A stretch of DNA of 49,611 bases from a virus: IMG/VR virus record IMGVR_UViG_3300000553_000063, positions 1 through 49,611 of that record. One strand, written 5' to 3'. Both the position numbers and the translations under genes were made by a program. Shown here piece by piece: positions 3,124 to 31,613 of the stretch (its first letter is position 1; the number at the start of each line of letters is the position of its first letter). Under the pieces are notes generated by a model, which worked only from the letters and a program-made list of their open reading frames with translations, was not told the origin of the DNA and did not search any database.

Positions 3124-4290
3124 ATGAGTGAGCAAGAATTAGATAAAGAATATATTAAATTAAAGATACAAGAAATTTTAGATAAAGTACATACTGACCC
3201 AAGAAAAAGAAAAATTAAAGTTTTTCCTGACAGATTAAATTTTTGTTGTCCAATTTGTGAAGACAGTTTAAACCCGACAAAAAAAAGAGGCAATTTGTAT
3301 ATGAAAAATTTATTTTTCGTATGTTTTAATGAATCTGAATGTTCACGTTCATTTAATCGTTTACTTAAGACATTTAATATAGAAATCGATTTACAAAAAA
3401 AATTAGATATATACAATTATATTGATACCAATATAAGGTATAAGAAAGAGGATGATGATTTTGTTATACATAGATTGGATAGGTTAATAGATATTGATTT
3501 TCTTACAACGGCATTTAATGATAATACTTCTTCACAATTTTCAAAATTTATGCCAATTAAAATCAATTCTGCTGCTTATCAATATTTAAAATATGATAGA
3601 TTGATAGAAAATTTTGATAATATATATGAAGCAGAATATGCGATTTCACCTAAATGGAAAGAAAAAGTAATAGTATTATTGAATAAATCCGGAAAAAAAG
3701 TATTAGGTTTACAGATTCGTAATTTAAAATCAAGTAATAAAAGACTCTTTAAAACATTTAATTTTGAAAAATTACATAATATGTTACATCCGGATGATCC
3801 TTTGGATGAATTAGAAGCATTATTCTATAATAAAAGATCAAATTTTTATAATATATTAAATATTGATTGGGAAAAACCAGTAACTATTTTCGAAGGTTAT
3901 TTAGATAGCTTATTTATGAATAATAGTATAGCTGGTATAGGAATAAATTCTACGACTGACACTGAATTTTTATTTTCTGATGATTTGAATTTACGGTTTT
4001 TATACGATCAGGATTATATTGGAGTAAAAACTGCACTCTCTATGTTAGAAAAAGGTCACAAGGTTTTTTTATGGCAAAAATTAATAGATGATTTACTTAA
4101 AAATAAAGTAGATAAATATAAGGCTAAACAATATCTACTTAAAATAAAAGATTTAAATCAATTAGTTAAAGAAATAAATAATTTTGATACTTTTAGAAAA
4201 ATAAATTTAGAAAAATATTTTTCAAATGATATTTTTGATAAAATCTATTTGGATTATACTTTATATCTAAAAAATCAAACTAAAAAATGA
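3124..4290 (+). CDS. DNA primase, T4 gp61-like (zinc finger plus TOPRIM)
   Basis: This is a replication primase that makes RNA primers for lagging-strand synthesis. A zinc-binding motif lies near residues 41-73 (CCPIC, then C67 and C73), the arrangement of CHC2-type primase fingers. The catalytic TOPRIM domain shows VTIFEGYLDSLF near residue 256, with the conserved Glu, and LRFLYDQDYIG near residue 290, with the DxD that binds metal. The length of 388 residues fits T4-like primases, which lack a fused helicase. The stop overlaps the start of the following ART-like gene by four bases, and IF-3 follows, so the three genes form an operon. Start ATG at 3124 gives a complete N-terminus. Confidence 0.85.
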   Translation: MSEQELDKEYIKLKIQEILDKVHTDPRKRKIKVFPDRLNFCCPICEDSLNPTKKRGNLYMKNLFFVCFNESECSRSFNRLLKTFNIEIDLQKKLDIYNYIDTNIRYKKEDDDFVIHRLDRLIDIDFLTTAFNDNTSSQFSKFMPIKINSAAYQYLKYDRLIENFDNIYEAEYAISPKWKEKVIVLLNKSGKKVLGLQIRNLKSSNKRLFKTFNFEKLHNMLHPDDPLDELEALFYNKRSNFYNILNIDWEKPVTIFEGYLDSLFMNNSIAGIGINSTTDTEFLFSDDLNLRFLYDQDYIGVKTALSMLEKGHKVFLWQKLIDDLLKNKVDKYKAKQYLLKIKDLNQLVKEINNFDTFRKINLEKYFSNDIFDKIYLDYTLYLKNQTKK

Positions 4291-5108
4291 TTTCTAATTA
4301 TCAATATTACATAAAAAAGTTGAACGAAGGCTTAATCTCTACATATCCCATATCAAAATATTTTGAGAATTTAAAAACCTCTATTGAGTTAATAACGGAA
4401 TGTGAATTTGTAATTGCTCCAAATTTTGACAAAGAAACTTTTAAGATTGACATAAATCAACATATTTCATTTGATGAGATTCGAAAAATAAATGCGATAT
4501 GTAATAATTTTGGTTATTTTATATCCAAATTTGAAATATTTATAAATTCAAAATCTAATTTCTTAAAATATAAAAATGATACTTTTGAAAATGATATAAA
4601 AAATAATGAAAGATTAATTTTATTTTATGAATCTAAATTTGATACTGAAATAGTAGTTCCACAAAAAATATATCACGCCACAAACATTACACATTTAGAA
4701 AAAATAATGAAACATGGATTATTACCAAGATCAACTTCAAAATTACAATATCATTTGGATAGAATTTATTTTAGTTTAACTTTTAATGACTGTGAAAATA
4801 TTATAAATAAACTTAGAACTTTTGATAAATCAAATGTTGATGATTATATTATTTTGGAAATAGACACAACCAATTTTTATGAAAATAATTTTAATGATTC
4901 TAAGACTTTAGTTAAATTTAGAATTGATTCCCAATCTAATGGTATTTATACTTTTAGCAGCATACCAAAAAATAGAATAACTTTACTTAAAAAAATATAT
5001 CAAAAAAATAAAATTATTCCTTTTGATAAAATTGAAATACAAAAAAATAATATATTAATATATAATAACAATGAATTGAGTTATGAAGTCAATTTAAAAA
5101 ATAAATAA
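4287..5108 (+). CDS. ADP-ribosyltransferase-fold protein with capsid-targeting-like N-terminus
   Basis: Residues about 127-235 match the ART/KptA-like fold. There is a Y-H-A-T-N start at about residue 128, then GLLPRS, a DRIYFS strand, and a final YTFSSIPKNRI strand. This is the layout in which the NAD-binding His and Tyr/Ser lie in the first two strands. The first 130 residues are not recognised. The protein begins MISNYQYYIKKLNEG, and the paralogue at 20253-20930 begins MNYLEFVEQLKEG. Both resemble capsid-targeting peptides ending in an LxE site cut by the T4 prohead protease. T4 Alt is a packaged and injected ART, so the parallel is suggestive. A four-base overlap with the primase and a three-base gap to infC place it in one operon. 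Activity and target are not known. Confidence 0.6.
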   Translation: MISNYQYYIKKLNEGLISTYPISKYFENLKTSIELITECEFVIAPNFDKETFKIDINQHISFDEIRKINAICNNFGYFISKFEIFINSKSNFLKYKNDTFENDIKNNERLILFYESKFDTEIVVPQKIYHATNITHLEKIMKHGLLPRSTSKLQYHLDRIYFSLTFNDCENIINKLRTFDKSNVDDYIILEIDTTNFYENNFNDSKTLVKFRIDSQSNGIYTFSSIPKNRITLLKKIYQKNKIIPFDKIEIQKNNILIYNNNELSYEVNLKNK

Positions 5109-8360: not shown

Positions 8361-9944
8361 TTATCTATATATAAATTTATAAATTAAATTTCCACTATCA
8401 TATATTTTTAAAAATTGTTCATTTTCATCTATTTCCAATTTTTTATATCTCATAAAATCCTTTATATAATAGCAATTTGGTGATGTTTTTTCATAAAGTC
8501 TAAAGCCTAATTTATTATAAAAATTTTCCTGATATGACCTATCGATTGTTAAATTTATTTCCTTTGGTTGATATTTTTTGATAAAATAATCAAATATGAG
8601 TGATTCACTATTTACAATATTCATATTAAGCTTATTACAAAATCTTAATAATTCATAATTATGATCAAAAATCATTAAACTAACCAAATCTTCATTATAA
8701 AATAAACCAATTTTAATTTTAGATTTTATAAAGCCTTGAATATGATTATTTTCTAAAAAATCTTTTACTAAATTATCATTATCAATTTCTTTAATCTCAC
8801 ATTTTGATATATCAATTTCAATCGGTGTTTCATGTAGCTTATTCAAAATAATAGATTTAACTATATTTTGTTTGAATAACCAATCATCTTCCCATATGTG
8901 TATTAATTCTATGTTATTTTTTTCACATAATTCTGTTTTATTAATATGATAATCGTTATCTTTATGTTCTTCTGAATGCCAATATAATCCATTGTATTCA
9001 AATGCTAATTTTAATTCTGGCAAACAAATATCTAATTCATATGGTTTTATGATAGTTCTATTATTTAGTAATATTTCGTTATTATAATGTTCTTGAATAA
9101 AATTTAATAGCATTAATTCATTACCTGAAATGTTTGTTGTTATTGGATTACATATAGTGCAGATTGGAATATTATATCTTTTTCTATTATAATATAAATG
9201 AGGGTCTATAGTGAAATTATGATTTTTATTTTGATCACATGAAACTATATAGCAAGAATTTTTATAGTTAATTTCAATTATATCTTTATTCTTTTCTAAA
9301 ATTCGATTTATTTTAGTTATTTTTGCTTTATTTATTATTTCATTCTTTATATCATCTCTTTGAAATTGACATTTGACACCATATTTTTCAATCATTGTAT
9401 TAGATGTTTTTTCTAATGTTTTTTCATTTATTAGAGAATTAATATTTCCATATCGTTCTAAATTAGTCTCATTTATTTTATCTCTAAATTCTTTTAATTG
9501 TGCTGGATGCTCTACACCATATCTTTCTAAATTTGTATTTGCTATTTTTTTCTTTATTTCCTCTGATTGACATTGATGCTCAAATCCATATTTTTCTAAT
9601 ATTGTTTTTTTCCGTTTATCGTTAAATTCTTTGTTTTTTATTAACGCATCAACACCATATTTTTCTAATAATGTTAATTTTCTATTTTTATCATTACATT
9701 TGTAGCACAAATATTCATTATCCTTAGAGTTTTTTAAATATTTATTATATGCAAAATAGTAACTTTCTTTTTCTTCACCACATTTATCACATTTAATTAA
9801 GACTTTTTCGTGAGATGTTTTAGGTAATTGTTCAATTGGTATTTTAATTATATCTTTTACTTTGATATTACTATAACCTAATGATTCATAATAATGAATA
9901 TTTCCACCTTGAATTTTAATTGAAATTTCTGTTGTTAATAACAT
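8361..9944 (-). CDS. Free-standing homing endonuclease, KYGVEN-repeat family
   Basis: This 527-residue member shows all parts of the family. It has an N-terminal domain and a Cys4-type site (CDKCGEE, then CYKC). Five tandem repeats of about 23 residues follow, each with an L-E-K/R-Y-G core. A PD-(D/E)XK or Vsr-like nuclease core comes next, ELDICLPELKLAFEYNGLYWH, with a conserved WEDDW. The C-terminal domain of about 180 residues is shared with the other copies (NNHIQGFI, ELLRFCNKLN, TIDRSYQENFYNKLGF) and looks GNAT-like. It has its own TTTATATATAC promoter box 14 bases upstream. The gene lies between the deoxyribosyltransferase-like gene and small proteins; it is not inside a recognisable intron. 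The exact target is unknown. Confidence 0.85.
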   Translation of the reverse strand: MLLTTEISIKIQGGNIHYYESLGYSNIKVKDIIKIPIEQLPKTSHEKVLIKCDKCGEEKESYYFAYNKYLKNSKDNEYLCYKCNDKNRKLTLLEKYGVDALIKNKEFNDKRKKTILEKYGFEHQCQSEEIKKKIANTNLERYGVEHPAQLKEFRDKINETNLERYGNINSLINEKTLEKTSNTMIEKYGVKCQFQRDDIKNEIINKAKITKINRILEKNKDIIEINYKNSCYIVSCDQNKNHNFTIDPHLYYNRKRYNIPICTICNPITTNISGNELMLLNFIQEHYNNEILLNNRTIIKPYELDICLPELKLAFEYNGLYWHSEEHKDNDYHINKTELCEKNNIELIHIWEDDWLFKQNIVKSIILNKLHETPIEIDISKCEIKEIDNDNLVKDFLENNHIQGFIKSKIKIGLFYNEDLVSLMIFDHNYELLRFCNKLNMNIVNSESLIFDYFIKKYQPKEINLTIDRSYQENFYNKLGFRLYEKTSPNCYYIKDFMRYKKLEIDENEQFLKIYDSGNLIYKFIYR

Positions 9945-13244: not shown

Positions 13245-14630
13245 ATGATAAGAGAAAAAGAAATAAATGTTCATGTCTCATATAGAAATATAGCACATTA
13301 TAAGAAATTAGGATATAATGCCGTGTTACATGAAGAAATATTAATAAAACCAACAGATTTATCATCTGTATCACATCAAAAAATTACAGCAATTTGTGAT
13401 ATTTGTGGTGTAGAAAAGATAATTGCATATCATAAATATTTAGAAAACGAAAAAAGATGTGGATATTATGGATGTAAACCTTGTGCGAATGAGAAAAGAA
13501 AGATAACAAGTATTGAACGATTTGGCTCTGATAACTATATGAAAACAAATGAAGCTAAAGAAAGAATCGCGTCAAATAATATAAAAAAATATGGTGTAAA
13601 AACCACTTTATTAGAAATGAATACTAAAAATAAGATAGATAAAACTATTTTTGATCTTTATGGTGTTGACAATATTTTATCATCAAAAACTATCATAGAA
13701 AAATCCAGAAAAACAATGTTTGAAAAATATGGTGAAAAATATTATAGAACAAGTGGTAAAGAATTAGAAATTCTGGCGTTTTTGAATAAAAATTGTGAAT
13801 ATAAAATTTTACAAAATGATACAACAGTTATAAATAAAGAATTAGATATGTACATTTCAGAATTAAATTTAGCAGTAGAATTTAATGGTATATATTGGCA
13901 TTCTGATAGGTATAAAACCAAAGATTTTCATTGGGAAAAGACCGAATTGTGTGAACAAAATAATGTAAATTTAATTCAAATATGGGAAGATGATTGGGTT
14001 TTTAGACAAGAAATTGTAAAATCAATGTTATTAAATAAGTTAAATAAAACAAAAAATAAAATATTTGCTAGAAAATGTGAAATAAAAGAAATTACTGATA
14101 ATAAATTAATTAAAGAATTTTTGATTAAAAATCATATCCAAGGTTTTGTTGGATCTCAAGTGAAATTAGGATTGTTTTATAATGCTGAATTAGTCAGTTT
14201 AATGACATTCGGTAAACAAAGAAAATCAATGGGATTAATTTCTGTGGAAAATTCTTTTGAATTGCTGAGGTTTTGTAATAAATTAGATCATAATGTAATT
14301 GGTGGTGCAAGTAAATTATTTACCTTTTTCGTAAAAAATTATAAACCAAACGAAATACTTAGTTATGCTAATAGATCATGGAGTACAGGTAATATGTATT
14401 ATACATTAGGATTCGAGTTAATAAAAAAAACACAACCAAATTATTATTATTTTGATAGAAAATGTCATAGATATAATCGATTTAATTTTAGGAAAGATGT
14501 TTTAATTAAAATGGGTTATGATAAATCTAAAACTGAATTTGAAATAATGAACGAATTACCATATTACCGAGTTTATGATTCTGGTAGTTTAAAATTTTTA
14601 TTTAAACCAAATCTAAATAAAATTCTATAA
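13245..14630 (+). CDS. Free-standing homing endonuclease, KYGVEN-repeat family, directly upstream of a DNA polymerase fragment
   Basis: The 461-residue member has an N-terminal domain, a Cys4 site (CDICGVEK, CKPC) and four repeats with an x-Y/F-G core. The nuclease core is ELDMYISELNLAVEFNGIYWH with WEDDW, followed by the shared C-terminal domain (NHIQGFVG, ELLRFCNKLDHNVIGGASKLF, ANRSWSTGNMYYTLGF). Its TAA stop is followed in the same frame by an open reading frame that becomes the fingers region of a family-B DNA polymerase. It therefore probably marks the spot where the polymerase gene was cut, like the gp43A/gp43B split of some T4-like phages. The N-terminal polymerase half is not in the window. 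Confidence 0.85.
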   Translation: MIREKEINVHVSYRNIAHYKKLGYNAVLHEEILIKPTDLSSVSHQKITAICDICGVEKIIAYHKYLENEKRCGYYGCKPCANEKRKITSIERFGSDNYMKTNEAKERIASNNIKKYGVKTTLLEMNTKNKIDKTIFDLYGVDNILSSKTIIEKSRKTMFEKYGEKYYRTSGKELEILAFLNKNCEYKILQNDTTVINKELDMYISELNLAVEFNGIYWHSDRYKTKDFHWEKTELCEQNNVNLIQIWEDDWVFRQEIVKSMLLNKLNKTKNKIFARKCEIKEITDNKLIKEFLIKNHIQGFVGSQVKLGLFYNAELVSLMTFGKQRKSMGLISVENSFELLRFCNKLDHNVIGGASKLFTFFVKNYKPNEILSYANRSWSTGNMYYTLGFELIKKTQPNYYYFDRKCHRYNRFNFRKDVLIKMGYDKSKTEFEIMNELPYYRVYDSGSLKFLFKPNLNKIL

Positions 14631-14651: not shown

Positions 14652-15542
14652 TTGACCGCAAAAGAAAAAAGAGAAAAAATATCAGAATTAAAAGCCAGAA
14701 TAGAAGAAACTCAAGCAGCTTATGATAGAGCTAAAGCTATGCAGCTCGCGTTAAAATTAGTAATTAATGGTACATATGGAGCATTTGCGCATCCGAAATT
14801 TGTTCTTTCAAATTCGTTCATTGCAAATGCTATCACAGCTATGGGTCGTGATGTTATTCAATATATGTTGAAAAATATAGAAAAATATTTCTATATGCAA
14901 TGGCATCTTGATACAGAATCACATAAAAAACTTGGTATCGAATATGTTGCAGAAAAAGATGGTAAATATTTTTTATTAGATAGTTTAGGTGAAAATATTC
15001 ATTATCCACATAATTCATTTTTAGAACTAATTAACAAACTTAATATTACAAGAAGTGATCTAAAAGATGATAAGAAAGAGTTAAATGGATATAATGTTTT
15101 ATATCGTAGAGATTTACATAATTTTTCAAACATTTTACAAATACCTAAGGATGAACCAATTACAATTTATGGTGATACAGATTCTGTAGCACCAGATACT
15201 ATTATATCAACGAATAATGGTGAAAAAACAATTGAAGATTTTTATAATGAGAATATAGAAAAAGGTTCGGCTGGTATAACATTAAAAGGACATGAAAGTG
15301 TTTATACTAATGATAAAATATTAAATTATGATGAAAATAAAGGTTTATATTATGCACCTGTTAGAAGAATCATAAGACATAAAGTTTGTAAAGCAAAATG
15401 GAAACTAAAAACTAAATCAGGCGAGGAAATTATAGTCACGAATGATCATTCAATGATTGTTTTTAGAGATGGTAAAAAATTAGAAGTTAAACCATCTGAA
15501 ATATTAAAAACTGATAAAATTCTTTCTATTAGAAAAAAATGA
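14652..15542 (+). CDS. DNA polymerase family B (gp43-like), middle fragment fused to N-terminal half of a split intein
   Basis: This fragment carries the fingers and part of the palm. Motif B is KLVINGTYGAF near residue 36, preceded by the helical pair typical of T4/RB69 polymerase, and motif C is YGDTD at residues 172-176. The chain then passes into an intein at Ser177 and stops at 15542. The exonuclease domain and motif A (DxxSLYPS) are absent and must be encoded outside the window. No ATG fits the 5' end: the listed start is TTG, and the frame is open back to the TAA of the endonuclease gene at 14630. The full enzyme would need protein trans-splicing with the product of 16666-17637 plus a separate N-terminal subunit. 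Confidence 0.88.
   Translation: MTAKEKREKISELKARIEETQAAYDRAKAMQLALKLVINGTYGAFAHPKFVLSNSFIANAITAMGRDVIQYMLKNIEKYFYMQWHLDTESHKKLGIEYVAEKDGKYFLLDSLGENIHYPHNSFLELINKLNITRSDLKDDKKELNGYNVLYRRDLHNFSNILQIPKDEPITIYGDTDSVAPDTIISTNNGEKTIEDFYNENIEKGSAGITLKGHESVYTNDKILNYDENKGLYYAPVRRIIRHKVCKAKWKLKTKSGEEIIVTNDHSMIVFRDGKKLEVKPSEILKTDKILSIRKK
15183..15539 (+). other. Split intein, N-terminal half (IntN, 119 residues)
   Basis: The intein begins at the Ser codon directly after YGDTD, with block A SVAPDTIISTNNGEKTIEDF (Ser as residue 1). Block B ends in TNDHSMIV, which holds the conserved T-x-x-H. LEVKPSEILKTDKIL is the usual end of the N-terminal splicing subdomain. The frame stops after a few lysines, with no endonuclease domain in it. 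Confidence 0.9.
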
Positions 15543-15552
15543 CATTTCTATA

Positions 15553-15576
15553 TTTATATATAGTTTAGGAAGGTGG
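15553..15576 (+). promoter_or_regulatory. Promoter box and rare Shine-Dalgarno sequence for the intein-associated endonuclease
   Basis: TTTATATATAG (15553-15563) is followed by AGGAAGGTGG (15567-15576), eight bases before the ATG at 15585. Almost no other gene in the window has a purine-rich ribosome site, so this gene carries its own transcription and translation signals. Confidence 0.6.
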
Positions 15577-15584
15577 TATAATTT

Positions 15585-16676
15585 ATGTACGATACTAAAA
15601 AGTTTATAAAAAAATCTATTCTAATACACGGTGATAAGTATGATTATAGTTTAGTTGAATATTCATCATCAAAAACAAAAGTTAAAATTATTTGTAAAAA
15701 ACATGGTGAATTCGAGCAATTACCAGCAAAGCATTTATTAGGTAGGGGTTGTATGATTTGTGGTGGAAGTAAAAAGAAAAATAATGAAGAATTTATAGTA
15801 AAGTCAATGGAGACACATGGTGATTTATATAATTATTCTTTATCTGATTATAAAGGAGCAAAGAAGTTAGTGAAAATAATTTGTAGAAAACATGGTATTT
15901 TTGAACAATCACCGTATAATCATATCAAAGGTTCAAAATGTCCTAATTGTTATTTAGAGTCAAAATTTAAAACAACTGAGGAATTTATTATTGACGCAAA
16001 AAAAGTTCATGCTGATTTATATGATTATTCTAAAGTTATTTATATTAAAAATAATATACCAGTTGAAATAATTTGCAAAAAACATGGTTCTTTTTTTCAA
16101 CAACCTTCTACACACTTAAACAAAGGTAATTGTCCTATTTGTGCAGAAGAAAACAAAAAATTAACTAGATTACAATTTTTATTAAATTCTATAAAAATCC
16201 ATGGTGAATTTTATGATTATTCAAAATCTATTTATATTAATAATTATACCAAAACAGAAATTATTTGTCCTTCTCATGGTTCATTTTTTCAAGCACCAAA
16301 TTATCACATGTTAGGTCAAGGTTGTCCAAGTTGTAAAAAAAGTTTAATGGAGAACTATATATCTAAAATTTTGGATGAAAATAATATAAAATATGAAAGA
16401 CAAAAAACTTTTGAGTATTGTAAAAACATAAATAATTTACCATTTGATTTTTATTTAAATGAATTTAATATTTGTATAGAATTTAATGGGAAACAACACT
16501 ATGAATCAATAAAATATTTTGGCGGTGTTGAAACTTTGAAATATATTCAACATAATGATGATATTAAAAAAGAATTTTGTAAAACAAATAATATTAAATA
16601 TTTGGAAATTTCTTATAAAGAAGAAAAACAAATTGAAGATATAATTAAAAAAGAATTAAATTTAAATGATAAATGA
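15585..16676 (+). CDS. Free-standing homing endonuclease between split intein halves (CxxHG-repeat family)
   Basis: The 363-residue protein has four tandem units of about 60 residues. Each reads H-G/A-x-x-Y-x-Y-S, then I-I-C-x-x-H-G-x-F-x-Q-x-P-x-x-H, and ends in C-x-x-C, so each is a probable zinc ribbon. The C-terminal nuclease core is LPFDFYLNEFNICIEFNGKQHY, a Vsr-like/PD-(D/E)XK pattern. The same architecture with three units is found at 40353-41243. It is not in frame with the intein. It lies between the IntN and IntC halves and ends inside the start of the C-terminal polymerase gene (11-base overlap). This matches the published fractured-gene arrangement, in which a free-standing endonuclease separates split intein halves. 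Confidence 0.88.
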   Translation: MYDTKKFIKKSILIHGDKYDYSLVEYSSSKTKVKIICKKHGEFEQLPAKHLLGRGCMICGGSKKKNNEEFIVKSMETHGDLYNYSLSDYKGAKKLVKIICRKHGIFEQSPYNHIKGSKCPNCYLESKFKTTEEFIIDAKKVHADLYDYSKVIYIKNNIPVEIICKKHGSFFQQPSTHLNKGNCPICAEENKKLTRLQFLLNSIKIHGEFYDYSKSIYINNYTKTEIICPSHGSFFQAPNYHMLGQGCPSCKKSLMENYISKILDENNIKYERQKTFEYCKNINNLPFDFYLNEFNICIEFNGKQHYESIKYFGGVETLKYIQHNDDIKKEFCKTNNIKYLEISYKEEKQIEDIIKKELNLNDK

Positions 16677-16806
16677 GATTGAATACTATTTTGATGATAT
16701 AGAATCATGTGAAATGATAGGAGAATTTGGAGAGGAATATGTTTATGATATTGAAGTAGATGATGAAACTCATACATTTATAGGTAATAATATATTGGTT
16801 CATAAT
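16666..16806 (+). other. Split intein, C-terminal half (IntC, about 47 residues)
   Basis: Block F is EYVYDIEVDDETHTFIGNN and block G is ILVHN, ending in the conserved His-Asn. It is followed by Ser as the first C-extein residue (SLYISF). Together with IntN this is a complete mini-intein of about 166 residues. Splicing would restore YGDTD joined to SLYISF. Confidence 0.9.
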
Positions 16807-17637
16807 TCTCTATACATATCGTTTGCTCCAGTAATGAAATCTTGTAATTTTAAAGGAGATGAGTTAGATTTCATATTACATCTAGATAGAGTTATTATTA
16901 AAAAATTATTCAATCAATATCTTAATATTTATGCTGGTAAATTTGGTGTGAAAAATATTCATGATTTTGAACTTGAAACAATTAACCGATCTGCACTTCA
17001 TATACAAAAGAAGCATTACATTAATAATGTTGCTTGGGAGGATGGTATTTTCTATGAAAATTTAAGTTATTTTTATCCTAAAGGTGTTGAAATTATTAAA
17101 TCTTCTACGCCACCATTTGTTAGGGAAAATATTTATGAATTCTTAAAGTATGTTTTTTCAAATCCAACAACTATAAATATTAGAAAAGTATTATTAATTG
17201 TTAAGGATTTAAAAAAACAATTTATGATGGCGGATATTGAAGATATTAGTATGACGACTTCTTGTACTAATTATCAAACAAAAGTTATTGATGATGTAAC
17301 CGATGTTGTTACGGTTAAAGGTGCACATTTTGGAGTTAAAGCCGCGGCTTTACATAATTATTTATTAAATAAAAATTCTGAATATAAAATAAAATATGAT
17401 AATATAAGAGGTGGTCGAATAAAGTATTATTATTGTAATCATCCTAAGAATAATGTTTTTGCTTATATGAGAAGTATGCATCCTTATGAAATAGTTGATA
17501 AAGAAGGTGTTAAAATTGATTACGATGAACAATTTGATGTCACATTTTTGTCAATTATCAACAGATTCTTAGAACCAATTGGGCTTCCAACAATTAATAA
17601 GAGATTATCAGTATTAAATTCAATATTTTCAATTTAA
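16666..17637 (+). CDS. IntC fused to C-terminal part of DNA polymerase family B (gp43-like)
   Basis: After IntC (47 residues) the extein runs from SLYISF, the second half of motif C, through the rest of the palm and the thumb. A KKHYINNVAWEDG segment corresponds to the KKRY motif of T4/RB69 polymerase, and GVEIIKSSTPPFVRENIYEF matches the T4 segment around GLETQKSSTPK. The C-terminus ends in LSVLNSIFSI, where T4 polymerase has its clamp-binding tail; this one ends in a hydrophobic-aromatic run and may serve the same role. The ATG overlaps the end of the endonuclease gene, suggesting coupled translation. The 276 extein residues contain no frameshift. Confidence 0.9.
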   Translation: MINEIEYYFDDIESCEMIGEFGEEYVYDIEVDDETHTFIGNNILVHNSLYISFAPVMKSCNFKGDELDFILHLDRVIIKKLFNQYLNIYAGKFGVKNIHDFELETINRSALHIQKKHYINNVAWEDGIFYENLSYFYPKGVEIIKSSTPPFVRENIYEFLKYVFSNPTTINIRKVLLIVKDLKKQFMMADIEDISMTTSCTNYQTKVIDDVTDVVTVKGAHFGVKAAALHNYLLNKNSEYKIKYDNIRGGRIKYYYCNHPKNNVFAYMRSMHPYEIVDKEGVKIDYDEQFDVTFLSIINRFLEPIGLPTINKRLSVLNSIFSI

Positions 17638-17722: not shown

Positions 17723-19579
17723 ATGTTACTAACCAAAGAAGTTTATGTCACAATAAATTCTAGTAGTATAAGACACTATAAAGAATTAGGTTATAAAGTT
17801 AAAGTAAGAGATAAAATTTGTATACCTATTGAGCATTTAACACATGGTAGCTTGGTTGAAATTGATGTAAAGTGTGATATTTGTGCTGGTGAAAGAAAAA
17901 TTACATATAAAAGATATGTAGATAATATTAAAAAATATGGTATTTTTTCTTGTTCAAGAAAATGTGCAAACATTAAAAGAAAAAAAACTAATTTAGAAAA
18001 ATATGGTGTGGAGAATGTTTCTAGTAATCAAATTATAAAAGACAAAAAAGTACAAACTTGTTTAAATAATTATGGTGTTGAAAATTATACACAAACAAAT
18101 AATTATAAAGAAAAATATAAAAAAACTTGTTTAGAAAAATACGGTGTAGAAAATGCCAATCAAAGTGATATAGTAAAAGAAAAAATAAAAATAACTTGTT
18201 TAGAAAAATATGGTGTAACATCGCCATTAAAAAATACAGAAATAATGAATAAGTTAATCAAAAATAATTTAGAAAAATATGGTACAGAGTTTTATATGTC
18301 AACTGAAGAATTTAAAGAAAAATCTAAACAAACAAATTTAGATAGGTATGGTGTAGAAAAATATTATAATTTTGAAAAAATAACAAATACAAATATTGAA
18401 AGATATGGTGATTGGTACACTAAAACAGATGAGTATAAGGCAAAAACCTTAAAAACAAATATGGAGAAATATGGAGAAATTAATCCAAATTGTAATAAAA
18501 ATATAAAAAACAAGTCCAATGAAACTAGAAAAATTAATAGATTAAAAGAATTAGAAAAATATAATATAGTTAATATAAATTATGATGAAGGTGTTTATAC
18601 TTTTAGATGTGATTCTGGTTGTGAGCATACTTTTGATATTAATTATGATACAATGAAAAATAGAAGAACATATAATATTAAGTTGTGTACAATTTGTAAT
18701 AATTATTTAATCCGATCTGGCGATGAAAATAATATTTATGATTTTATAAAAGAAAATTATTATGGTAAGATTATACAAAGTAGTAGAAAAATAATAACAC
18801 CACTAGAATTGGATATTTATATTCCAGAATTAAAATTGGCATTTGAATTTAATGGTTTATTTTGGCACAATGAAATAACTAAGGAAAAGAATTATCATTT
18901 AAATAAAACAGAAAAATGTGAAAAACAAGGTATTCAATTAATTCATATCTGGGAAGATGATTGGATTTATAAACAAGAAATAGTCAAATCAATAATATTA
19001 AATAAATTAGGTATGAATAATACTAAAATTTATGCTAGAAAATGTGAAATTAAAGAAATATCGGATAATAATTTAATTAGAGATTTTTTAAATCAAAATC
19101 ATTTACAAGGACATATAGGTTCAAAAATTAAAATCGGACTTTATTTTCAAGATGAATTGATTTCTTTAATGACTTTTGGTAATCGTAGAGTTGCGATGGG
19201 TAAAAAAATCACTAATCAAAATGAATATGAATTATTAAGGTTTTGTGATAAATTGAATACTAATGTTATAGGTGGTGCCAGTAAATTATTTAAATATTTT
19301 ATAAGGAATTATAGTCCGAAGGAAATCACAACTTATGCGGATAGGTCGTTCAGTCAAGGTAAATTGTATGAAATTTTAGGATTTACATTACAAAGTAAAA
19401 CTGAGCCAAATTATTATTATATTATTGATGGAATAAGACATCATAGATTTAATTTTAGAAAAGATAAATTAATTCGTGAAGGATTTGATATAAATAAAAC
19501 TGAACATGAAATAATGTTAGAAAGAAAAATTTTTAGGATATTTGATTCTGGAAATTTAAAATTTAATTATTTAATATGA
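17723..19579 (+). CDS. Free-standing homing endonuclease, KYGVEN-repeat family (largest copy)
   Basis: At 618 residues this is the longest family member, because it has eight repeats of about 23 residues (residues about 95-275) against four or five in most relatives. The N-terminal domain and Cys site (CDICAGER, CSRKC) precede the repeats. The nuclease core is ELDIYIPELKLAFEFNGLFWH with WEDDW. The C-terminal domain follows (NHLQGHIG, ELLRFCDKLNTNVIGGASK, ADRSFSQGKLYEILGF). Its closest copy in the window is 22533-24131, nearly identical over the last 300 residues. The stop overlaps the ATG of the next gene (ATGA). It is the third endonuclease gene around the broken polymerase. Confidence 0.88.
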   Translation: MLLTKEVYVTINSSSIRHYKELGYKVKVRDKICIPIEHLTHGSLVEIDVKCDICAGERKITYKRYVDNIKKYGIFSCSRKCANIKRKKTNLEKYGVENVSSNQIIKDKKVQTCLNNYGVENYTQTNNYKEKYKKTCLEKYGVENANQSDIVKEKIKITCLEKYGVTSPLKNTEIMNKLIKNNLEKYGTEFYMSTEEFKEKSKQTNLDRYGVEKYYNFEKITNTNIERYGDWYTKTDEYKAKTLKTNMEKYGEINPNCNKNIKNKSNETRKINRLKELEKYNIVNINYDEGVYTFRCDSGCEHTFDINYDTMKNRRTYNIKLCTICNNYLIRSGDENNIYDFIKENYYGKIIQSSRKIITPLELDIYIPELKLAFEFNGLFWHNEITKEKNYHLNKTEKCEKQGIQLIHIWEDDWIYKQEIVKSIILNKLGMNNTKIYARKCEIKEISDNNLIRDFLNQNHLQGHIGSKIKIGLYFQDELISLMTFGNRRVAMGKKITNQNEYELLRFCDKLNTNVIGGASKLFKYFIRNYSPKEITTYADRSFSQGKLYEILGFTLQSKTEPNYYYIIDGIRHHRFNFRKDKLIREGFDINKTEHEIMLERKIFRIFDSGNLKFNYLI

Positions 19580-20220
19580 GTAACACAAGAAATTTTGCTG
19601 AACGTGAATTAGAAATATTAGTAAAATCTTCATCATTGGATGATAGACCTATTATAGAGGAATTTATACCAGAGATACTTGCATTATGTGAAAAATTTGG
19701 AAATAGTGGCCAAAGTGGTGGTTCTGCACCATATACTGCAAATGCTTTATCATCAACGATAAAAAAATTATGTTTACAAGAACCTATTTGTCCTATAATG
19801 GGCATTGATGAGGAATGGATTGATGTATCACATTTTTTTGATACTCCTTCTTGGCAAAATAGTAGATGTCCTTCATTATTTAAAAATGAGAAGGGTGAAA
19901 TTACTTATAGTGATGCTATATTTAAAAAATCACCAGATGGTTCAACTTGGAGTGGAAAATTTTGGATGAGTAGAGAAGATTATCTAACGGGCGATAGATC
20001 TTTAATGTTGGGTGGCAATCTTTTTATCAAAGGCTTTCCTTTTGTACCTAAAACATTCTATATTGATGTTATTGAAGAAGAGGTTGCGAAAGATGATTTT
20101 GAAATGTATGTAAAAGATAAATCTCAACTTGATGAGGTATATAAATATTATGATAAGAAATGTATGTTGAAAATAAGGGACAGAAAGAGAAAATTAGAAA
20201 AAATAAATAAAAAATATTAA
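19576..20220 (+). CDS. Conserved phage hypothetical protein
   Basis: The 214-residue protein has an N-terminal NFAERELEIL segment, then KFGNSGQSGGSAPYTANAL, PICPIMGIDEEWIDV and NSRCPSLFKN. I recall this pattern from conserved phage proteins of unknown function, without a named activity. The C-terminal 70 residues are charged and helical (YKYYDKKCMLKIRDRKRKLEK). It starts inside the stop of the upstream endonuclease gene. A T-rich gap of 32 bases separates it from the convergent ART-like gene. Confidence 0.7.
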   Translation: MSNTRNFAERELEILVKSSSLDDRPIIEEFIPEILALCEKFGNSGQSGGSAPYTANALSSTIKKLCLQEPICPIMGIDEEWIDVSHFFDTPSWQNSRCPSLFKNEKGEITYSDAIFKKSPDGSTWSGKFWMSREDYLTGDRSLMLGGNLFIKGFPFVPKTFYIDVIEEEVAKDDFEMYVKDKSQLDEVYKYYDKKCMLKIRDRKRKLEKINKKY

Positions 20221-20252: not shown

Positions 20253-20930
20253 TTATAAATTTTCTTTTAAGATTATTATGTTTTTTGGATTGATGTTATC
20301 ATAAGTAAAATAACCTATTCTATAATTTGGATCTGTATGTAAAAATAACTTGCTATCAGAACAATTGATTTCTAACAGTAGATATTCTTTTTTAGTATTG
20401 TCAGATATTTTTAGTTGTTTTAATAAAACATTATAATTATTAAGATCATCAAATAAATATATTCTTTCTGGATGATTAGACAATCTTTTTTTTGATTTAG
20501 GATAAATCCCTTTTTTGAGAATACCTTCTTTATTTTCTTGATAAGATAAATGATATAATTTATCAGGACAAATTACCGTGTTTTTATATAAACCTTCTTC
20601 ATATTTACCTTCATATTTGATTGATACATTTTTTGTATTAATTGGCAATGTATTTATTTCTTTGAAACCATTTTTCATATCATTGCTTAATGTGATCCAA
20701 TAATAAGATGGAAAATAGCCGAGTGTATAACAATTATGATTAATCACTTCAATCAAATCCATATCATTAGTTTCAATTATTAATTTAAATTCAAGTTTGT
20801 CAATAATATCAATAGAATGTTTAATATTTATTTGATCTAAAAAATCTGTTATTATACTTGAATATTTTGTTATGTCATGTGTGGTTATTAAACCTTCTTT
20901 TAATTGTTCAACAAATTCTAAATAATTCAT
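20253..20930 (-). CDS. ADP-ribosyltransferase-fold protein, paralogue of 4287-5108
   Basis: The 225-residue protein aligns along its length with the protein at 4287. The N-termini match (MNYLEFVEQLKEGLITTHDITKY against MISNYQYYIKKLNEGLIST), as do a Y-H-L-S motif near residue 120, GIYPKSKKRLSNHPERIYLF, and a final GYFTYDNINPKNIIIL. This is the ART/KptA-like layout. The first 12 residues fit a capsid-targeting peptide with an LKE site. It overlaps the methylase gene upstream by four bases, in a three-gene operon read from 22118. Which residues are catalytic is not clear, and activity is not proven. Confidence 0.6.
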   Translation of the reverse strand: MNYLEFVEQLKEGLITTHDITKYSSIITDFLDQINIKHSIDIIDKLEFKLIIETNDMDLIEVINHNCYTLGYFPSYYWITLSNDMKNGFKEINTLPINTKNVSIKYEGKYEEGLYKNTVICPDKLYHLSYQENKEGILKKGIYPKSKKRLSNHPERIYLFDDLNNYNVLLKQLKISDNTKKEYLLLEINCSDSKLFLHTDPNYRIGYFTYDNINPKNIIILKENL

Positions 20931-21403
20931 AAGGTTATGATTAATTCTCTATTAAAAATGTGTTTTTTTCCTTCATATCTATGAATATTAAAATTTTCAT
21001 ATAAATTGCGGATGAAAGGTCTATCTTCATAAGATAGAATAATTTTTCCTTTTAATTTTTCAATTTCACATTTTAAATCTATATGAAAGTCATTTGTATA
21101 ATTTTCACAACCTTTATATAAAAATTCTCTTGTATAGTAAGGTGGATCTAAGTACCACACAACATTTTCTGTGTTATACATATTAAATATTTCTTTATAA
21201 TCTAAATGATGAATAATATCAGCATCAATTTTAGTATTATAAATATTAATATCATTGTAAATTGATAATTTAGGTTTATTTTTTAAATAATTAAATATAG
21301 AAAAATCTCCACCAAATGGCTCACAATAAATTTCTATATTTTCAGGAATAAATTTGCTTATAAAGGAATCGAACAATTCTCTTTTTTTGTGACCGTATAT
21401 CAT
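20927..21403 (-). CDS. Compact D12-class DNA adenine N6-methyltransferase (Dam-like)
   Basis: The family transfers methyl groups from SAM to adenine in DNA. The SAM motif EPFGGDFSIF is at residues 28-37 and the catalytic DPPY at residues 86-89 (VVWYLDPPYYTREFLY). IILSYEDRPFIRNLY and a C-terminal RELIITL strand fit the end of the fold. At 158 residues it is much shorter than typical Dam (about 270); the target-recognition region between the two motifs is almost missing. It could be a minimal active enzyme or a degraded one. It overlaps its neighbours by four bases on both sides. Confidence 0.75.
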   Translation of the reverse strand: MIYGHKKRELFDSFISKFIPENIEIYCEPFGGDFSIFNYLKNKPKLSIYNDINIYNTKIDADIIHHLDYKEIFNMYNTENVVWYLDPPYYTREFLYKGCENYTNDFHIDLKCEIEKLKGKIILSYEDRPFIRNLYENFNIHRYEGKKHIFNRELIITL

Positions 21404-22532: not shown

Positions 22533-24131
22533 TTATTTTTTCTTATCTAGATAAATATATTTTAAATTTCCAGAATCATATATTCTACAAATTCCTCTTT
22601 CTAACATTATTTCATGTTCTGTTTTATTTATATCAAAACCTTCTCTAACAAGTTTATCTTTTCTAAAATTAAATCTGTGACGTTTTATTCCGTCTATAAC
22701 ATAATAATAATTTGGTTCGGTTTTCTCAATAAAATCAAAACCTAAAGTTTTATATAATTTACCTTGACTGAATGATCTATCAGCATATGTTGTGATTTCT
22801 AGAGGCTTGTATTTATCAATGAAATATTTAAATAATTTACTAGCACCTCCTATTACATTAGTATTTAATTTATTGCAAAATCTTAAAAGTTCATATTCAT
22901 TTTCATTAGTTGTTTTTTTACCCATTGCAACTCTACGATTACCAAAAGTCATTAACGATACTAATTTATCTTGAAAATAAAGTCCTAATTTAACTTTTGA
23001 TCCAATAAAACCTTGAATATGATTTGTTTCTAAAAACTTTCTAATTAAATTATTATCTGATACTTCTTTAATTTCACATTTTCTAGCATAAATTTTAGTA
23101 TTATTCATACCTAATTTATTTAATAAAATAGACTTAATGATATTTTGTTTATAAATCCAATCATCTTCATAAATATGAATTAATTGTATACCTAATTTTT
23201 CACACATTTCAGTTTTAATTAAATGATAATTTTTCTCTTTATTTAACTCATTGTGCCAATAAATTCCATTGAATTCAATGCCTATTTTTAATTTAGGAAT
23301 ATAAATATCAATTTCTAAAGGTGATATAATTGAACGGGTATTATATAAAATTTCATCAATTTTTAATTCATCAACAAAGTTTTTGAGTTGGCTTTGTAAT
23401 CCTGTATTAGATTTTGTAGGATTACAAATTGTACAAAATATGGTTTTAAATGTTTTTCGGCTACTTAATAGATGCCTATGAATTGTAAAATTATGATTTA
23501 AATTACAATCACATTTCATTTCATAATTATCACCATTAATAGAAAGTACATTTAGATTTTCTAGTATTTTTTTATTAGAATTTTCTTTATTAATAATGCT
23601 TAATTTTTCTTTTATTTCTTTTGAATATGAAGGATTTTCAACACCATATTTAGTGATATTGGTTTTTTTTATTTTATTCTTTATTAATTCAGAAGAAAAA
23701 ACATTTTCAACTCCATACAATTTTAAATTTGTTTTTTTGATTTTATCCTTTACTGATTTATTTTGAGTATGATGACAACCATATATTTTTGCATCTGTTT
23801 CTTTAACTCTTTTTTGATATTCTTCAGTTTGCATATAATATTCTTTTCCAAAATTTTTAATACTTGTTTTTTTAACTTTTTCTTGAGCACATTTGCTAGA
23901 GCAAGCATAAAAATTATCATTTTTGATATTTTTTATATATTTCTGAAAAGACAATTCTTTTTCTTTATCACAAATATCACATTTTACTTTAATTTTAATA
24001 TGACTACCAGGATTCAAATCTTCTGTTTTTATTTCTACAATATCTTTTAATTTTACATCATATAATTTTGATATTAAATGTTTTATGTTCTTTTTTGATA
24101 CTTTTATTTTAATTTTATCTGTAATTATCAT
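22533..24131 (-). CDS. Free-standing homing endonuclease, KYGVEN-repeat family
   Basis: The 532-residue copy has the N-terminal domain, Cys site (CDICDKEK, CSSKC), four repeats with an x-Y/F-G core, then CDCNLNHNFTIH and CTIC. The nuclease core is EIDIYIPKLKIGIEFNGIYWH with YEDDW. The C-terminal domain (NHIQGFIG, ELLRFCNKLNTNVIGGASK, ADRSFSQGKLYKTLGF) is almost the same as in 17723-19579, so the two copies diverged recently or exchanged sequence. It carries its own TTTTATATATAC box at 24169-24180. There is no intron evidence around it. Confidence 0.87.
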   Translation of the reverse strand: MIITDKIKIKVSKKNIKHLISKLYDVKLKDIVEIKTEDLNPGSHIKIKVKCDICDKEKELSFQKYIKNIKNDNFYACSSKCAQEKVKKTSIKNFGKEYYMQTEEYQKRVKETDAKIYGCHHTQNKSVKDKIKKTNLKLYGVENVFSSELIKNKIKKTNITKYGVENPSYSKEIKEKLSIINKENSNKKILENLNVLSINGDNYEMKCDCNLNHNFTIHRHLLSSRKTFKTIFCTICNPTKSNTGLQSQLKNFVDELKIDEILYNTRSIISPLEIDIYIPKLKIGIEFNGIYWHNELNKEKNYHLIKTEMCEKLGIQLIHIYEDDWIYKQNIIKSILLNKLGMNNTKIYARKCEIKEVSDNNLIRKFLETNHIQGFIGSKVKLGLYFQDKLVSLMTFGNRRVAMGKKTTNENEYELLRFCNKLNTNVIGGASKLFKYFIDKYKPLEITTYADRSFSQGKLYKTLGFDFIEKTEPNYYYVIDGIKRHRFNFRKDKLVREGFDINKTEHEIMLERGICRIYDSGNLKYIYLDKKK

Positions 24132-28142: not shown

Positions 28143-29720
28143 ATGATTAAAACGAGAGAAATAAAAGTAAAAGTTTCAAATGCTACTATTAAGCATTATA
28201 GATCTAAAGGATATGAATGTGAAATAAAAAGTTTTATAACTGTTAAAACTGAAGATTTGATGATTCAATCTACAGTTAAGATAGTTGCGATTTGTGATAT
28301 TTGTGGTGAAGAAAAAATAGTAGAATATAGAAGATATATGAATAATATTAAAAATAAAAATTTTTATGTTTGTTCTTTATCTTGTGCACAATCTAAAATA
28401 AAAATATCTAAAAAAGAAAATCATAATGATACTAATTTTTCAAATATTGAAAAAAGAGAAAAAACTTGTGAAGAAAAATATGGAGATAAAAATTATAAAA
28501 ATATAGACCAAATTAAAAAAACTAATATAGTGAAATATGGATGTGAATTTGCCATACAAAATGATCTTATTAAAGAAAAAAGAAAAAAAACAAATGTCAT
28601 CAAATTTGGTGTAGATATACCAATCAAAAATAGTAAAATTAAAGAAAAAAGAAAAAAAACATTATTTGACAGGTATGGAAATGAAAATTTCAATAATATT
28701 GATAAAACATTAAATACAATAAAAAATGTTAATATCGATAAATTGATATCTAATTTTTCATTAAATGTGATAGATTATAAAGATAAATTGTTTGTGATAA
28801 AATGTGAAAAAGGACATAATTATAAAATTTCATATGATTTAATTTCTAAGAGAACTATTCAAAATAATTCAATTTGTACAATATGCAATCCTATAGGTGT
28901 TCAATATTCTGATGCTGAAAAACAATTGCAAAAATTTATTATGGAAAATTGTAATTATGATATAGTTACAAATAATAGATCTATAATTAAACCTTATGAA
29001 TTAGATGTCTATATATCAAAATTAAAATTAGCATTTGAATATAATGGATTATTCTGGCATAGTGAATTATATAAAGATAAAAATTATCATAAAATGAAAT
29101 TTAAAATGTGCGAAAAACAAGATATACAATTAATTCAAATACTAGAAGATGATTGGATATATAAACAAGATATAGTAAAATCTATGATTTTAAATAAATT
29201 AGGCAAATCAAATAAAATTTATGCAAGAACGTGTGAAATTAGACAAATAAATGATAACGATATGGTTAGAAATTTTCTAAATGAAAATCATATACAGGGA
29301 TTTGTTGGTTCAAATATTAAATTAGGCTTATTTTTTGAAAGTAAATTAGTTAGTTTGATGACTTTCATTAAAAAAGGAAATAATACATATGAATTAAATA
29401 GATTTTGTAATATACTAAATACTAATATAATAGGAGGAGCAAGTAAATTATTTGTATATTTTATTAAGAATTATTCATATGAAAAAATAATATCATTTTC
29501 TAATAATTTTTATTCTAATGGTCACTTATACAACATATTAAATTTTAAAAAAATAAAAGAATTAAAAGAAGATTATTCATATATAGTCAATGGTAAAAGG
29601 ATTCATAAATTTAATTTTAGAAAAAATAAAAATCAAAAAGAAACAGAAAGAGAAACAATGCTAAATAATAATTATTTGAGAATATACGATGCAGGTAAAA
29701 TTAAATTTATCTATCCATAA
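28143..29720 (+). CDS. Free-standing homing endonuclease, KYGVEN-repeat family
   Basis: The 525-residue copy has the N-terminal domain, Cys site (CDICGEEK, CSLSC), four repeats with a K-Y/F-G core, and CTIC. The nuclease core is ELDVYISKLKLAFEYNGLFWH with LEDDW. The C-terminal domain is more diverged than in its relatives: the ADRS motif seen in other copies is replaced by SNNFYSNGHLYNIL. The stop overlaps the end of the convergent neck-like gene by 14 bases. It lies six bases after the membrane protein and has no promoter box of its own in that gap. Confidence 0.85.
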   Translation: MIKTREIKVKVSNATIKHYRSKGYECEIKSFITVKTEDLMIQSTVKIVAICDICGEEKIVEYRRYMNNIKNKNFYVCSLSCAQSKIKISKKENHNDTNFSNIEKREKTCEEKYGDKNYKNIDQIKKTNIVKYGCEFAIQNDLIKEKRKKTNVIKFGVDIPIKNSKIKEKRKKTLFDRYGNENFNNIDKTLNTIKNVNIDKLISNFSLNVIDYKDKLFVIKCEKGHNYKISYDLISKRTIQNNSICTICNPIGVQYSDAEKQLQKFIMENCNYDIVTNNRSIIKPYELDVYISKLKLAFEYNGLFWHSELYKDKNYHKMKFKMCEKQDIQLIQILEDDWIYKQDIVKSMILNKLGKSNKIYARTCEIRQINDNDMVRNFLNENHIQGFVGSNIKLGLFFESKLVSLMTFIKKGNNTYELNRFCNILNTNIIGGASKLFVYFIKNYSYEKIISFSNNFYSNGHLYNILNFKKIKELKEDYSYIVNGKRIHKFNFRKNKNQKETERETMLNNNYLRIYDAGKIKFIYP

Positions 29721-30557: not shown

Positions 30558-31613
30558 ATGATAATAACGAAAAAAGTCTCCTTAATAATAAATAATAGAT
30601 ATGTTAAATATTATATAAATAAAGGTTATAATGTTAAGGGTGGTCAAATAATAGAAATTAAAATTGAAGATTTAGCAAAAAGTAGTAATATCTTGATTGA
30701 AGCTGAATGTGACTGTTGTGCCAAAAAAAGAGAAGTAATGTTTGTTGCATATAATAGATACACTAAAAATCAGACGGAAGAATATTATTGTCAAAAATGC
30801 AATAATATAAAAAGAAAAATAACCGTAAAAGAAAAATATGGTGTTGATAATATACTTGAATCAGATATTATTAAAGATAAAGTAAAAAGGACTATGATTA
30901 AAAGATATGGAAATGAACACGCTTTAAATGTTCCAGAATTAAAAGAAAAAGCAAGAAAAACTAATAATGAAAGATTTGGCTGTGATTTTGCTTCCCAGAA
31001 TGAAGGCATCAAAGAAAAAATTAAAGAAGCATTTTTGAAAAATTACGGTGTGTCAACATCTTTATTAGATCCAGAAACTCAAAATAAAATATCTAAGACA
31101 AATATAGAAAAATATGGTGTGAATAATGTATTGAAATTAAAAAATTTTAGAGAAGATGGATTATTTGAAATTTATGGTGTGAAATGTCCTTTTCATTCAA
31201 TTGAAATTAAAGAAAAAATAAAAGAAACTAATTTAATTAAATATGGCTGTGAAAATCCAATGTCAAATAAGGAAATTAAAGAAAAAATGATTAAGACAAA
31301 ACAAAATTTAGGAATTTATTTGCAAGATTATCAAAGAGATGATTTCACTAATTATAGATTAAAAGTAAAATCGTTAACAAATAAAAATAGAAAATCGTTG
31401 TATGAAAATTGGACTGGGTTAGATTTTTATGATAATGAGTATATTAAAAATATTATTAATCAAAAAGATAAAAAATATCCAACAATAGATCATAAAATTT
31501 CTGTTAAATATGGGTTTGATAATAACATATCTCCGGAAGAAATTTCTAAAATTTCTAATCTATGTATAACTAAACGATGTAATAATTCGTCTAAAGGCTC
31601 CGGGTGTAGATGA
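30558..31613 (+). CDS. KYGVEN-repeat endonuclease with HNH-type nuclease domain
   Basis: The 351-residue protein shares the N-terminal domain, a Cys site (CDCCAKKR, CQKC) and seven YGV-type repeats with the other family members. It lacks the Vsr-like core and the C-terminal domain. Instead it ends YPTIDHKISVKYGF, followed by ISNLCITKRCNNSSKG, the D-H...N-L...N pattern of His-Me-finger (HNH) nucleases. It is therefore the same DNA-binding array joined to a different nuclease. It seems complete: the frame is closed and there is no sign of a lost C-terminus. Confidence 0.75.
   Translation: MIITKKVSLIINNRYVKYYINKGYNVKGGQIIEIKIEDLAKSSNILIEAECDCCAKKREVMFVAYNRYTKNQTEEYYCQKCNNIKRKITVKEKYGVDNILESDIIKDKVKRTMIKRYGNEHALNVPELKEKARKTNNERFGCDFASQNEGIKEKIKEAFLKNYGVSTSLLDPETQNKISKTNIEKYGVNNVLKLKNFREDGLFEIYGVKCPFHSIEIKEKIKETNLIKYGCENPMSNKEIKEKMIKTKQNLGIYLQDYQRDDFTNYRLKVKSLTNKNRKSLYENWTGLDFYDNEYIKNIINQKDKKYPTIDHKISVKYGFDNNISPEEISKISNLCITKRCNNSSKGSGCR

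What the first reader, a model, noticed from the sequence alone, without database searches (positions are those of the whole stretch)
14652..17637. DNA polymerase broken at motif C by a split intein, with a homing endonuclease between the halves
The first polymerase fragment ends YGDTD followed by an IntN (block A, T-x-x-H block B). The second starts with an IntC ending in VHN, followed by SLYISF. Together they give a complete mini-intein of about 166 residues with Ser at position 1 and Ser at +1, inserted inside the catalytic motif C. Between the halves lies an out-of-frame endonuclease of the CxxHG-repeat/Vsr-like type with its own promoter box and ribosome site. The polymerase can be active only after trans-splicing. 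The arrangement follows the fractured-gene split inteins described in metagenomic phage genes; the insertion in motif C of a T4-like polymerase, with this endonuclease family, seems unusual.
Basis: partly seen in the sequence, partly recalled or inferred. Interest (0 to 1): 0.9.

Follow-up and report, generated by a model that had tools for sequence, protein, structure and literature searches.

The report
Phage polymerase rejoined by split intein
A huge phage encodes its DNA polymerase in separate pieces, two of which should be stitched together by a self-cutting protein (a split intein) with a homing-nuclease gene between its halves; this arrangement is already known from several phages, and what this copy adds is a clear case of the nuclease having been exchanged while the intein around it stayed put.

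Summary
ORF 14652-15542 ends in polymerase motif C, YGDTD, followed by a 119-residue IntN. ORF 16666-17637 starts with a 47-residue IntC ending VHN, followed by SLYISF. Between them, out of frame, lies a treble-clef-repeat (CxxHG) endonuclease with a Vsr-like catalytic domain. Joining the exteins gives YGDTDSLYISF, the sequence found in uninterrupted relatives.

The architecture is not new. Aeromonas phage Aes508, Tenacibaculum phage PTm1, Lak phages, PA5oct and MIJ3 carry split inteins at the same site with a nuclease between the halves. Among 81 loci (80 from IMG/VR plus the window) I count 59 split and 22 cis inteins there. The Aes123 homologue has a crystal structure and splices in vitro.

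First, the polymerase is in three pieces: the exonuclease/motif-A part is not in this record and lies about 90-100 kb away in relatives. Second, the nuclease has been exchanged: the closest intein (91% identical) carries a different nuclease family, and DNA homology breaks at the nuclease cassette edges. The closest nuclease (74%) is free-standing in a phage whose motif C is uninterrupted.

Verdict: a real new member of a known kind, of moderate interest.

The parts
13245..14630 (+). Flanking free-standing homing endonuclease (HEG1, DUF7487/phrog_3339 type) directly upstream of the polymerase fragment; homologues sit in the same place in L008, L009 and L012
14652..15182 (+). 43B-1 extein: polymerase segment from just before motif B to motif C YGDTD (177 residues)
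   Evidence: DNA_pol_B 1.2e-9, phrog_1918/262; aligned with uninterrupted 43B of relatives
15183..15542 (+). IntN, 119 residues plus stop; Ser1, block B TNDH
15554..15562 (+). TTATATATA promoter-like box, kept in relatives L004, L006 and L007 ahead of a different nuclease
15567..15576 (+). Shine-Dalgarno-like AGGAAGGTGG of the nuclease gene; unusual for this genome; start of the exchanged cassette lies between the box and here
15585..16676 (+). HEG2: CxxHG treble-clef-repeat endonuclease with C-terminal Vsr/EDxHD-like nuclease domain, in a frame different from both polymerase fragments
   Evidence: DUF4379/DUF723, phrog_559; model nearest to I-Bth0305I and Vsr
16666..16806 (+). IntC, 47 residues, blocks F and G, ends VHN; start overlaps the nuclease stop by 11 bases
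16807..17637 (+). 43B-2 extein: polymerase from SLYISF (second half of motif C) to the C-terminus
   Evidence: phrog_262 7.7e-30, phrog_1918 7.4e-27
17723..19579 (+). Flanking free-standing homing endonuclease (HEG3, DUF7487 type) downstream of the polymerase

Best explanation
The C-terminal half of a T4-type family B DNA polymerase (43B) is encoded as two genes whose products are joined after translation by a naturally split mini-intein inserted in motif C (YGDTD^S). Inferred steps: IntN and IntC associate, Ser1 and Ser+1 carry out the acyl shift and transesterification, the terminal Asn of IntC cyclises, and a continuous 43B is released. 43B then pairs non-covalently with 43A (exonuclease plus motif A), encoded elsewhere in the genome. 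The nuclease gene between the halves is a mobile passenger that drives, or once drove, the IntN-nuclease-IntC cassette into uninterrupted alleles. In this lineage the nuclease is not the family usual for this intein; it was exchanged with a CxxHG-repeat nuclease by recombination at the cassette edges. Sequence, junctions, uninterrupted alleles and exchange are shown; splicing, cleavage and the direction of the exchange are inferred.
For: All splicing residues present; homology to 9HTH, whose parent intein splices. Exteins rejoin to YGDTDSLYISF as in uninterrupted L008-L013 and L016. Purifying selection on both intein halves (pN/pS 0.10-0.32), exteins (0.16-0.36) and HEG2 (0.27-0.43). Same layout annotated in Aes508 and PTm1 and published for MIJ3. 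43A unlinked in G001-G003. Homing footprint in related cassettes L002/L004. Sharp loss and return of DNA homology with L006 at the nuclease edges. Gap nucleases of this type do not form one clade (p-AU 1.4e-6), nor do their inteins (p-AU 0.026).
Against: No splicing, cleavage or polymerase data for this sequence. The Aes123 parent intein splices only about 30% in vitro, so efficiency is uncertain. 43A was not seen in this incomplete record. Support for the window-L058 intein pairing is moderate (94/56), so the direction of nuclease exchange is unsettled. The fold match of HEG2 is weak by E-value (0.0099).
Confidence: 0.88

Rival explanations
1. The intein halves no longer splice; 43A, 43B-1 and 43B-2 assemble non-covalently into a working polymerase, as the 43A/43B of Aeromonas phage 25 do.
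For: Split T4-like polymerase pieces can assemble without covalent joining (PMC2988022); 43A is a separate polypeptide here in any case.
Against: All catalytic intein residues are kept and both halves are under purifying selection; the break lies inside motif C with intein halves attached to both sides.
Confidence: 0.07
2. HEG2 does not mobilise the intein; it is a hitch-hiker that entered the gap from the free-standing pool, or by targeting the earlier nuclease cassette, and spreads for itself.
For: Its closest relative (74%) is free-standing two genes upstream of an uninterrupted 43B. It brings its own SD-like leader. 11 of 59 split inteins persist with no nuclease at all.
Against: L064 and L071 also carry CxxHG nucleases in the same gap, so the pairing recurs, and L071 shares the leader TATATATAGTTTAGGAAGGTG with the window, which fits transfer between split-intein cassettes. 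No cleavage-site data exist.
Confidence: 0.35
3. The locus is a decaying pseudogene or a misassembly, and a continuous polymerase exists.
For: The record is a fragment, so a second polymerase gene cannot be excluded.
Against: The same split recurs in many independent contigs and in isolated phages; frames are intact and under purifying selection.
Confidence: 0.03

Closest known systems
Aeromonas phage Aes508/Aes123 gp43 with the PolB1 split intein (PDB 9HTH)
   Same: Three-piece polymerase (43A, 43B-1, 43B-2), split intein at the same DTD^S site, typical split position, Vsr-like nuclease between the halves
   Different: 43A is adjacent rather than unlinked; its nuclease is phrog_22677, without CxxHG repeats; 43B-1 also holds a group I intron; intein is cysteine-less and only about a third identical in IntN
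Tenacibaculum phage PTm1/PTm5 split polymerase
   Same: 43A, then two ORFs, 43B-1/IntN, 'VSR endonuclease', IntC/43B-2
   Different: 43A on the same strand a few kb away; different nuclease family
Pseudomonas jumbo phages MIJ3 / PA5oct split PolB
   Same: Motif C split intein with a homing nuclease carrying DUF723 repeats between the halves; published (PMC6892783)
   Different: First fragment holds the whole N-terminal polymerase (no separate 43A); the nuclease has a Hef-like C-terminal half
Split inteins of Lak and related huge phages, and IMG/VR contigs L058-L137
   Same: Same site, same split, nuclease usually between the halves
   Different: 42 of 59 splits carry the Vsr-type nuclease; only L064 and L071 share the CxxHG type with the window
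I-Bth0305I (EDxHD homing endonuclease)
   Same: Predicted catalytic domain of HEG2 has it as nearest solved fold (3r3p, prob 1.00, E 0.0099)
   Different: HEG2 uses treble-clef CxxHG repeats for DNA recognition; no significant sequence match in the PDB

Membership tests
Naturally split intein (typical split at the endonuclease position) | N-terminal splicing blocks with Ser/Cys/Thr at position 1 and TxxH in block B | tested here: met
   S1, TNDH; intein_Nterm 1.4e-11
Naturally split intein (typical split at the endonuclease position) | C-terminal blocks F and G ending His-Asn, followed by Ser/Cys/Thr +1 | tested here: met
   VHN then Ser; intein_Cterm 3.9e-6
Naturally split intein (typical split at the endonuclease position) | IntN about 100-120 and IntC about 35-50 residues on separate ORFs | tested here: met
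   119 and 47 residues in different frames
Naturally split intein (typical split at the endonuclease position) | Trans-splicing activity | not testable with these tools
   needs co-expression
Fractured gene (Dassa et al. 2009): split intein with a free-standing nuclease ORF between the halves | Independent nuclease ORF between IntN and IntC in a conserved host gene | tested here: met
   15585-16676 between the halves, inside polymerase motif C
Fractured gene (Dassa et al. 2009): split intein with a free-standing nuclease ORF between the halves | Nuclease of the family usual at this site (Vsr-type, phrog_22677) | tested here: not met
   HEG2 scores with the CxxHG profile only; the Vsr-type profile does not match it; phrog_559 instead
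EDxHD / Vsr-like homing endonucleases | Catalytic domain fold of I-Bth0305I / Vsr | tested here: inconclusive
   best PDB hits 3r3p (prob 1.00, E 0.0099) and 1vsr (prob 0.96, E 0.37); model pTM 0.36
EDxHD / Vsr-like homing endonucleases | Site-specific DNA cleavage and homing | not testable with these tools
   needs biochemistry; only homing footprints of related cassettes were seen
T4-like split polymerase 43A/43B | 43B fragment spanning motif B to the C-terminus | tested here: met
   phrog_1918 and phrog_262; uninterrupted 453 aa 43B in relatives
T4-like split polymerase 43A/43B | Separate gene for exonuclease plus motif A | tested here: inconclusive
   absent from this record, present about 90-100 kb away in relatives G001-G003

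The most novel reading that the evidence does not exclude
The motif C split intein acts as a stable docking site through which different homing nucleases turn over by precise cassette exchange, and in this lineage the newcomer targets the resident nuclease cassette or nearby DNA rather than the intein's own insertion site, so that one selfish element has been taken over by another.
Probability: 0.3. Interest if true: 0.6.

Novelty: new member of a known kind. Interest (0 to 1): 0.38.

Why it matters
Uninterrupted alleles, alleles with either nuclease, nuclease-free splits and cis inteins all occur at one site among related huge phages, so the histories of intein, nuclease and host gene can be separated and the order of events in the birth and upkeep of split inteins becomes testable. 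It also adds natural split inteins that could be tried as protein-joining tools. The basic architecture itself is already documented.

Tried and rejected
Rfam at gathering thresholds: nothing in the window, so no recognised group I intron. tRNA scan: none. Polymerase exonuclease domain inside the window: none. Close relatives of HEG2 by pattern scan of viral contigs: only two weaker loci. HEG2 profile against PDB sequences: nothing significant, so a fold search was used. Dassa et al. 2009 is not in the paper library, so what I say of it rests on citations in papers read and on my own knowledge. A single origin of CxxHG nucleases in this gap was considered and rejected by AU tests. HEG2 as a recombinant of the Vsr-type nuclease was considered: between the junctions the DNA alignment with L006 falls to about 50-69% with many gaps, against 71-89% in the flanking intein and extein.

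Full report
Check of the observation. The first (14652-15542, TTG start) carries polymerase motif B (KLVINGTYGAF) and reaches motif C, YGDTD, followed by a 119-residue IntN. The last (16666-17637) starts with a 47-residue IntC and goes on as SLYISF and the polymerase C-terminus. Pfam Intein_splicing, NCBIfam intein_Nterm and intein_Cterm and the PHROG polymerase families all match. The solved Aes123 PolB1 intein (9HTH) matches IntN at 4e-11, and PolB16 inteins match IntC at about 6e-5. All splicing residues are present.

The gap ORF (HEG2) has CxxHG treble-clef modules and a C-terminal nuclease domain. An AlphaFold model (mean pLDDT 82, pTM 0.36, so domain arrangement is uncertain) is nearest in the PDB to the catalytic domain of the homing endonuclease I-Bth0305I (prob 1.00, E 0.0099) and, after spurious hits, to Vsr (prob 0.96, E 0.37). 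The E-values are weak, so I treat the fold class as likely, not proven.

Promoter box and ribosome site. TTATATATA occurs 20 times on both strands and 16 of these lie within 80 nt upstream of gene starts, so the box upstream of HEG2 is probably a real promoter element of this phage. AGGAAGGTGG upstream of HEG2 is unusual: 44 of 54 predicted genes have no 4-nt match to the SD consensus. IntC-PolC starts inside the last codons of HEG2, which suggests translational coupling (inference).

The polymerase is in three pieces. The record holds no polymerase exonuclease domain. In relatives with larger contigs (G001, G002, G003) a 493-494 aa gene with exonuclease domain and motif A (FDFASLYPTTMR or FDFSSLYPTTMR) lies about 90-100 kb from 43B, on the opposite strand; it belongs to PHROG 2062, 'DNA polymerase'. 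It corresponds to gp43A of Aeromonas phages. For phage 25 the separated 43A and 43B co-purify and are active (PMC2988022).

Precedents. Aes508 has 43A, a Seg-like nuclease, 43B-1/IntN, a VSR-type nuclease and IntC/43B-2 in a row. PTm1 has nearly the same layout. PA5oct and MIJ3 have a split motif C intein with a nuclease between the halves, described in print for MIJ3; the PA5oct nuclease carries the related DUF723 repeats. Lak phages have it too. A profile search of IMG/VR gave 80 loci. With the window these sort into 59 split and 22 cis inteins. Of the split ones 42 have the Vsr-type nuclease, 3 the CxxHG type (window, L064, L071), 1 the DUF7487 type, 11 none, and 2 run off the contig (near-duplicates not removed; classified by profiles I built from session sequences).

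Mobility. Relatives L008-L013 and L016 have uninterrupted motif C, YGDTDSLYISF; their exteins are 70-92% identical to the window's in protein. L002 and L004 share the intein-nuclease cassette at mostly 97-99% DNA identity (91-100%), while the flanking exteins lie mostly at 79-93% with one stretch at 98% near the end of PolC; the step falls at the intein boundary. That is the expected footprint of homing, seen in cassettes that carry the Vsr-type nuclease.

Nuclease exchange. The window's intein is closest to L006 (= L058), 91% in protein, and L006 has the Vsr-type nuclease. DNA homology runs through the IntN stop and CTATATTTATATATAG, is lost across the nuclease, and resumes at AAATGATAAA. The closest HEG2 relative (74%) is free-standing two genes upstream of an uninterrupted 43B in L012/L013. 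Holding the three CxxHG-bearing inteins together is rejected (p-AU 0.026), and so is holding the three gap nucleases together (p-AU 1.4e-6). L071 shares the window's nuclease leader (TATATATAGTTTAGGAAGGTG), so the donor may have been another split-intein cassette rather than a free-standing gene. Which nuclease came first in this lineage is not settled. Replacement of one free-standing homing nuclease by another at the same place is known in T4 relatives (SegH and Hef replacing mobC and mobE, cited in PMC2988022).

Function. Both intein halves, both exteins and HEG2 show purifying selection, pN/pS 0.10 to 0.43. Trans-splicing, cleavage and polymerase activity are inferred from homologues; none was measured here. 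That the polymerase is active only after trans-splicing is reasonable but not shown.

Verdict. Site and architecture are already documented, so this is a new member of a known kind. The added value is the unlinked 43A and the exchange of nucleases inside a conserved split intein.

Noticed in passing
827-1782, 8361-9944, 13245-14630, 15585-16676, 17723-19579, 22533-24131, 28143-29720, 30558-31613, 40353-41243: Nine homing-endonuclease-like genes or remnants fill about 12.0 kb, 24% of the window; 827-1782 looks broken and 30558-31613 has only the N-terminal half in common with the others.
   Followed up: partly
19576-20220: Protein matching Tad3, an inhibitor of type I Thoeris defence (Pfam PF25185, 3.6e-22), directly downstream of a homing endonuclease.
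   Followed up: no
48535-49611 and 38496-39224: IS605 OrfB/TnpB-like proteins, the first running off the end of the record.
   Followed up: no
4287-5108 and 20253-20930: Two proteins that look alike (NEGLISTYPISKYF / KEGLITTHDITKYS) with no Pfam match; function unknown.
   Followed up: no
20927-21403: Short protein matching only the C-terminal part of D12-class adenine methyltransferases (7.6e-14), perhaps truncated.
   Followed up: no
whole window, for example 15554-15562: TTATATATA box strongly enriched upstream of genes (16 of 20 occurrences), a candidate promoter element of this phage group.
   Followed up: partly
L079 versus L076; L125 versus L116: Sister inteins at the motif C site, one cis and one split with a nuclease (support 100/97 and 99/93), suggesting repeated conversion between cis and split forms.
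   Followed up: no
L007:5092-5980: The split-intein gap holds two extra ORFs of unknown function besides the nuclease.
   Followed up: no
L036 and L034: The separate 43A gene also has homing endonuclease genes next to it, which hints at a role of such nucleases in separating 43A from 43B.
   Followed up: no
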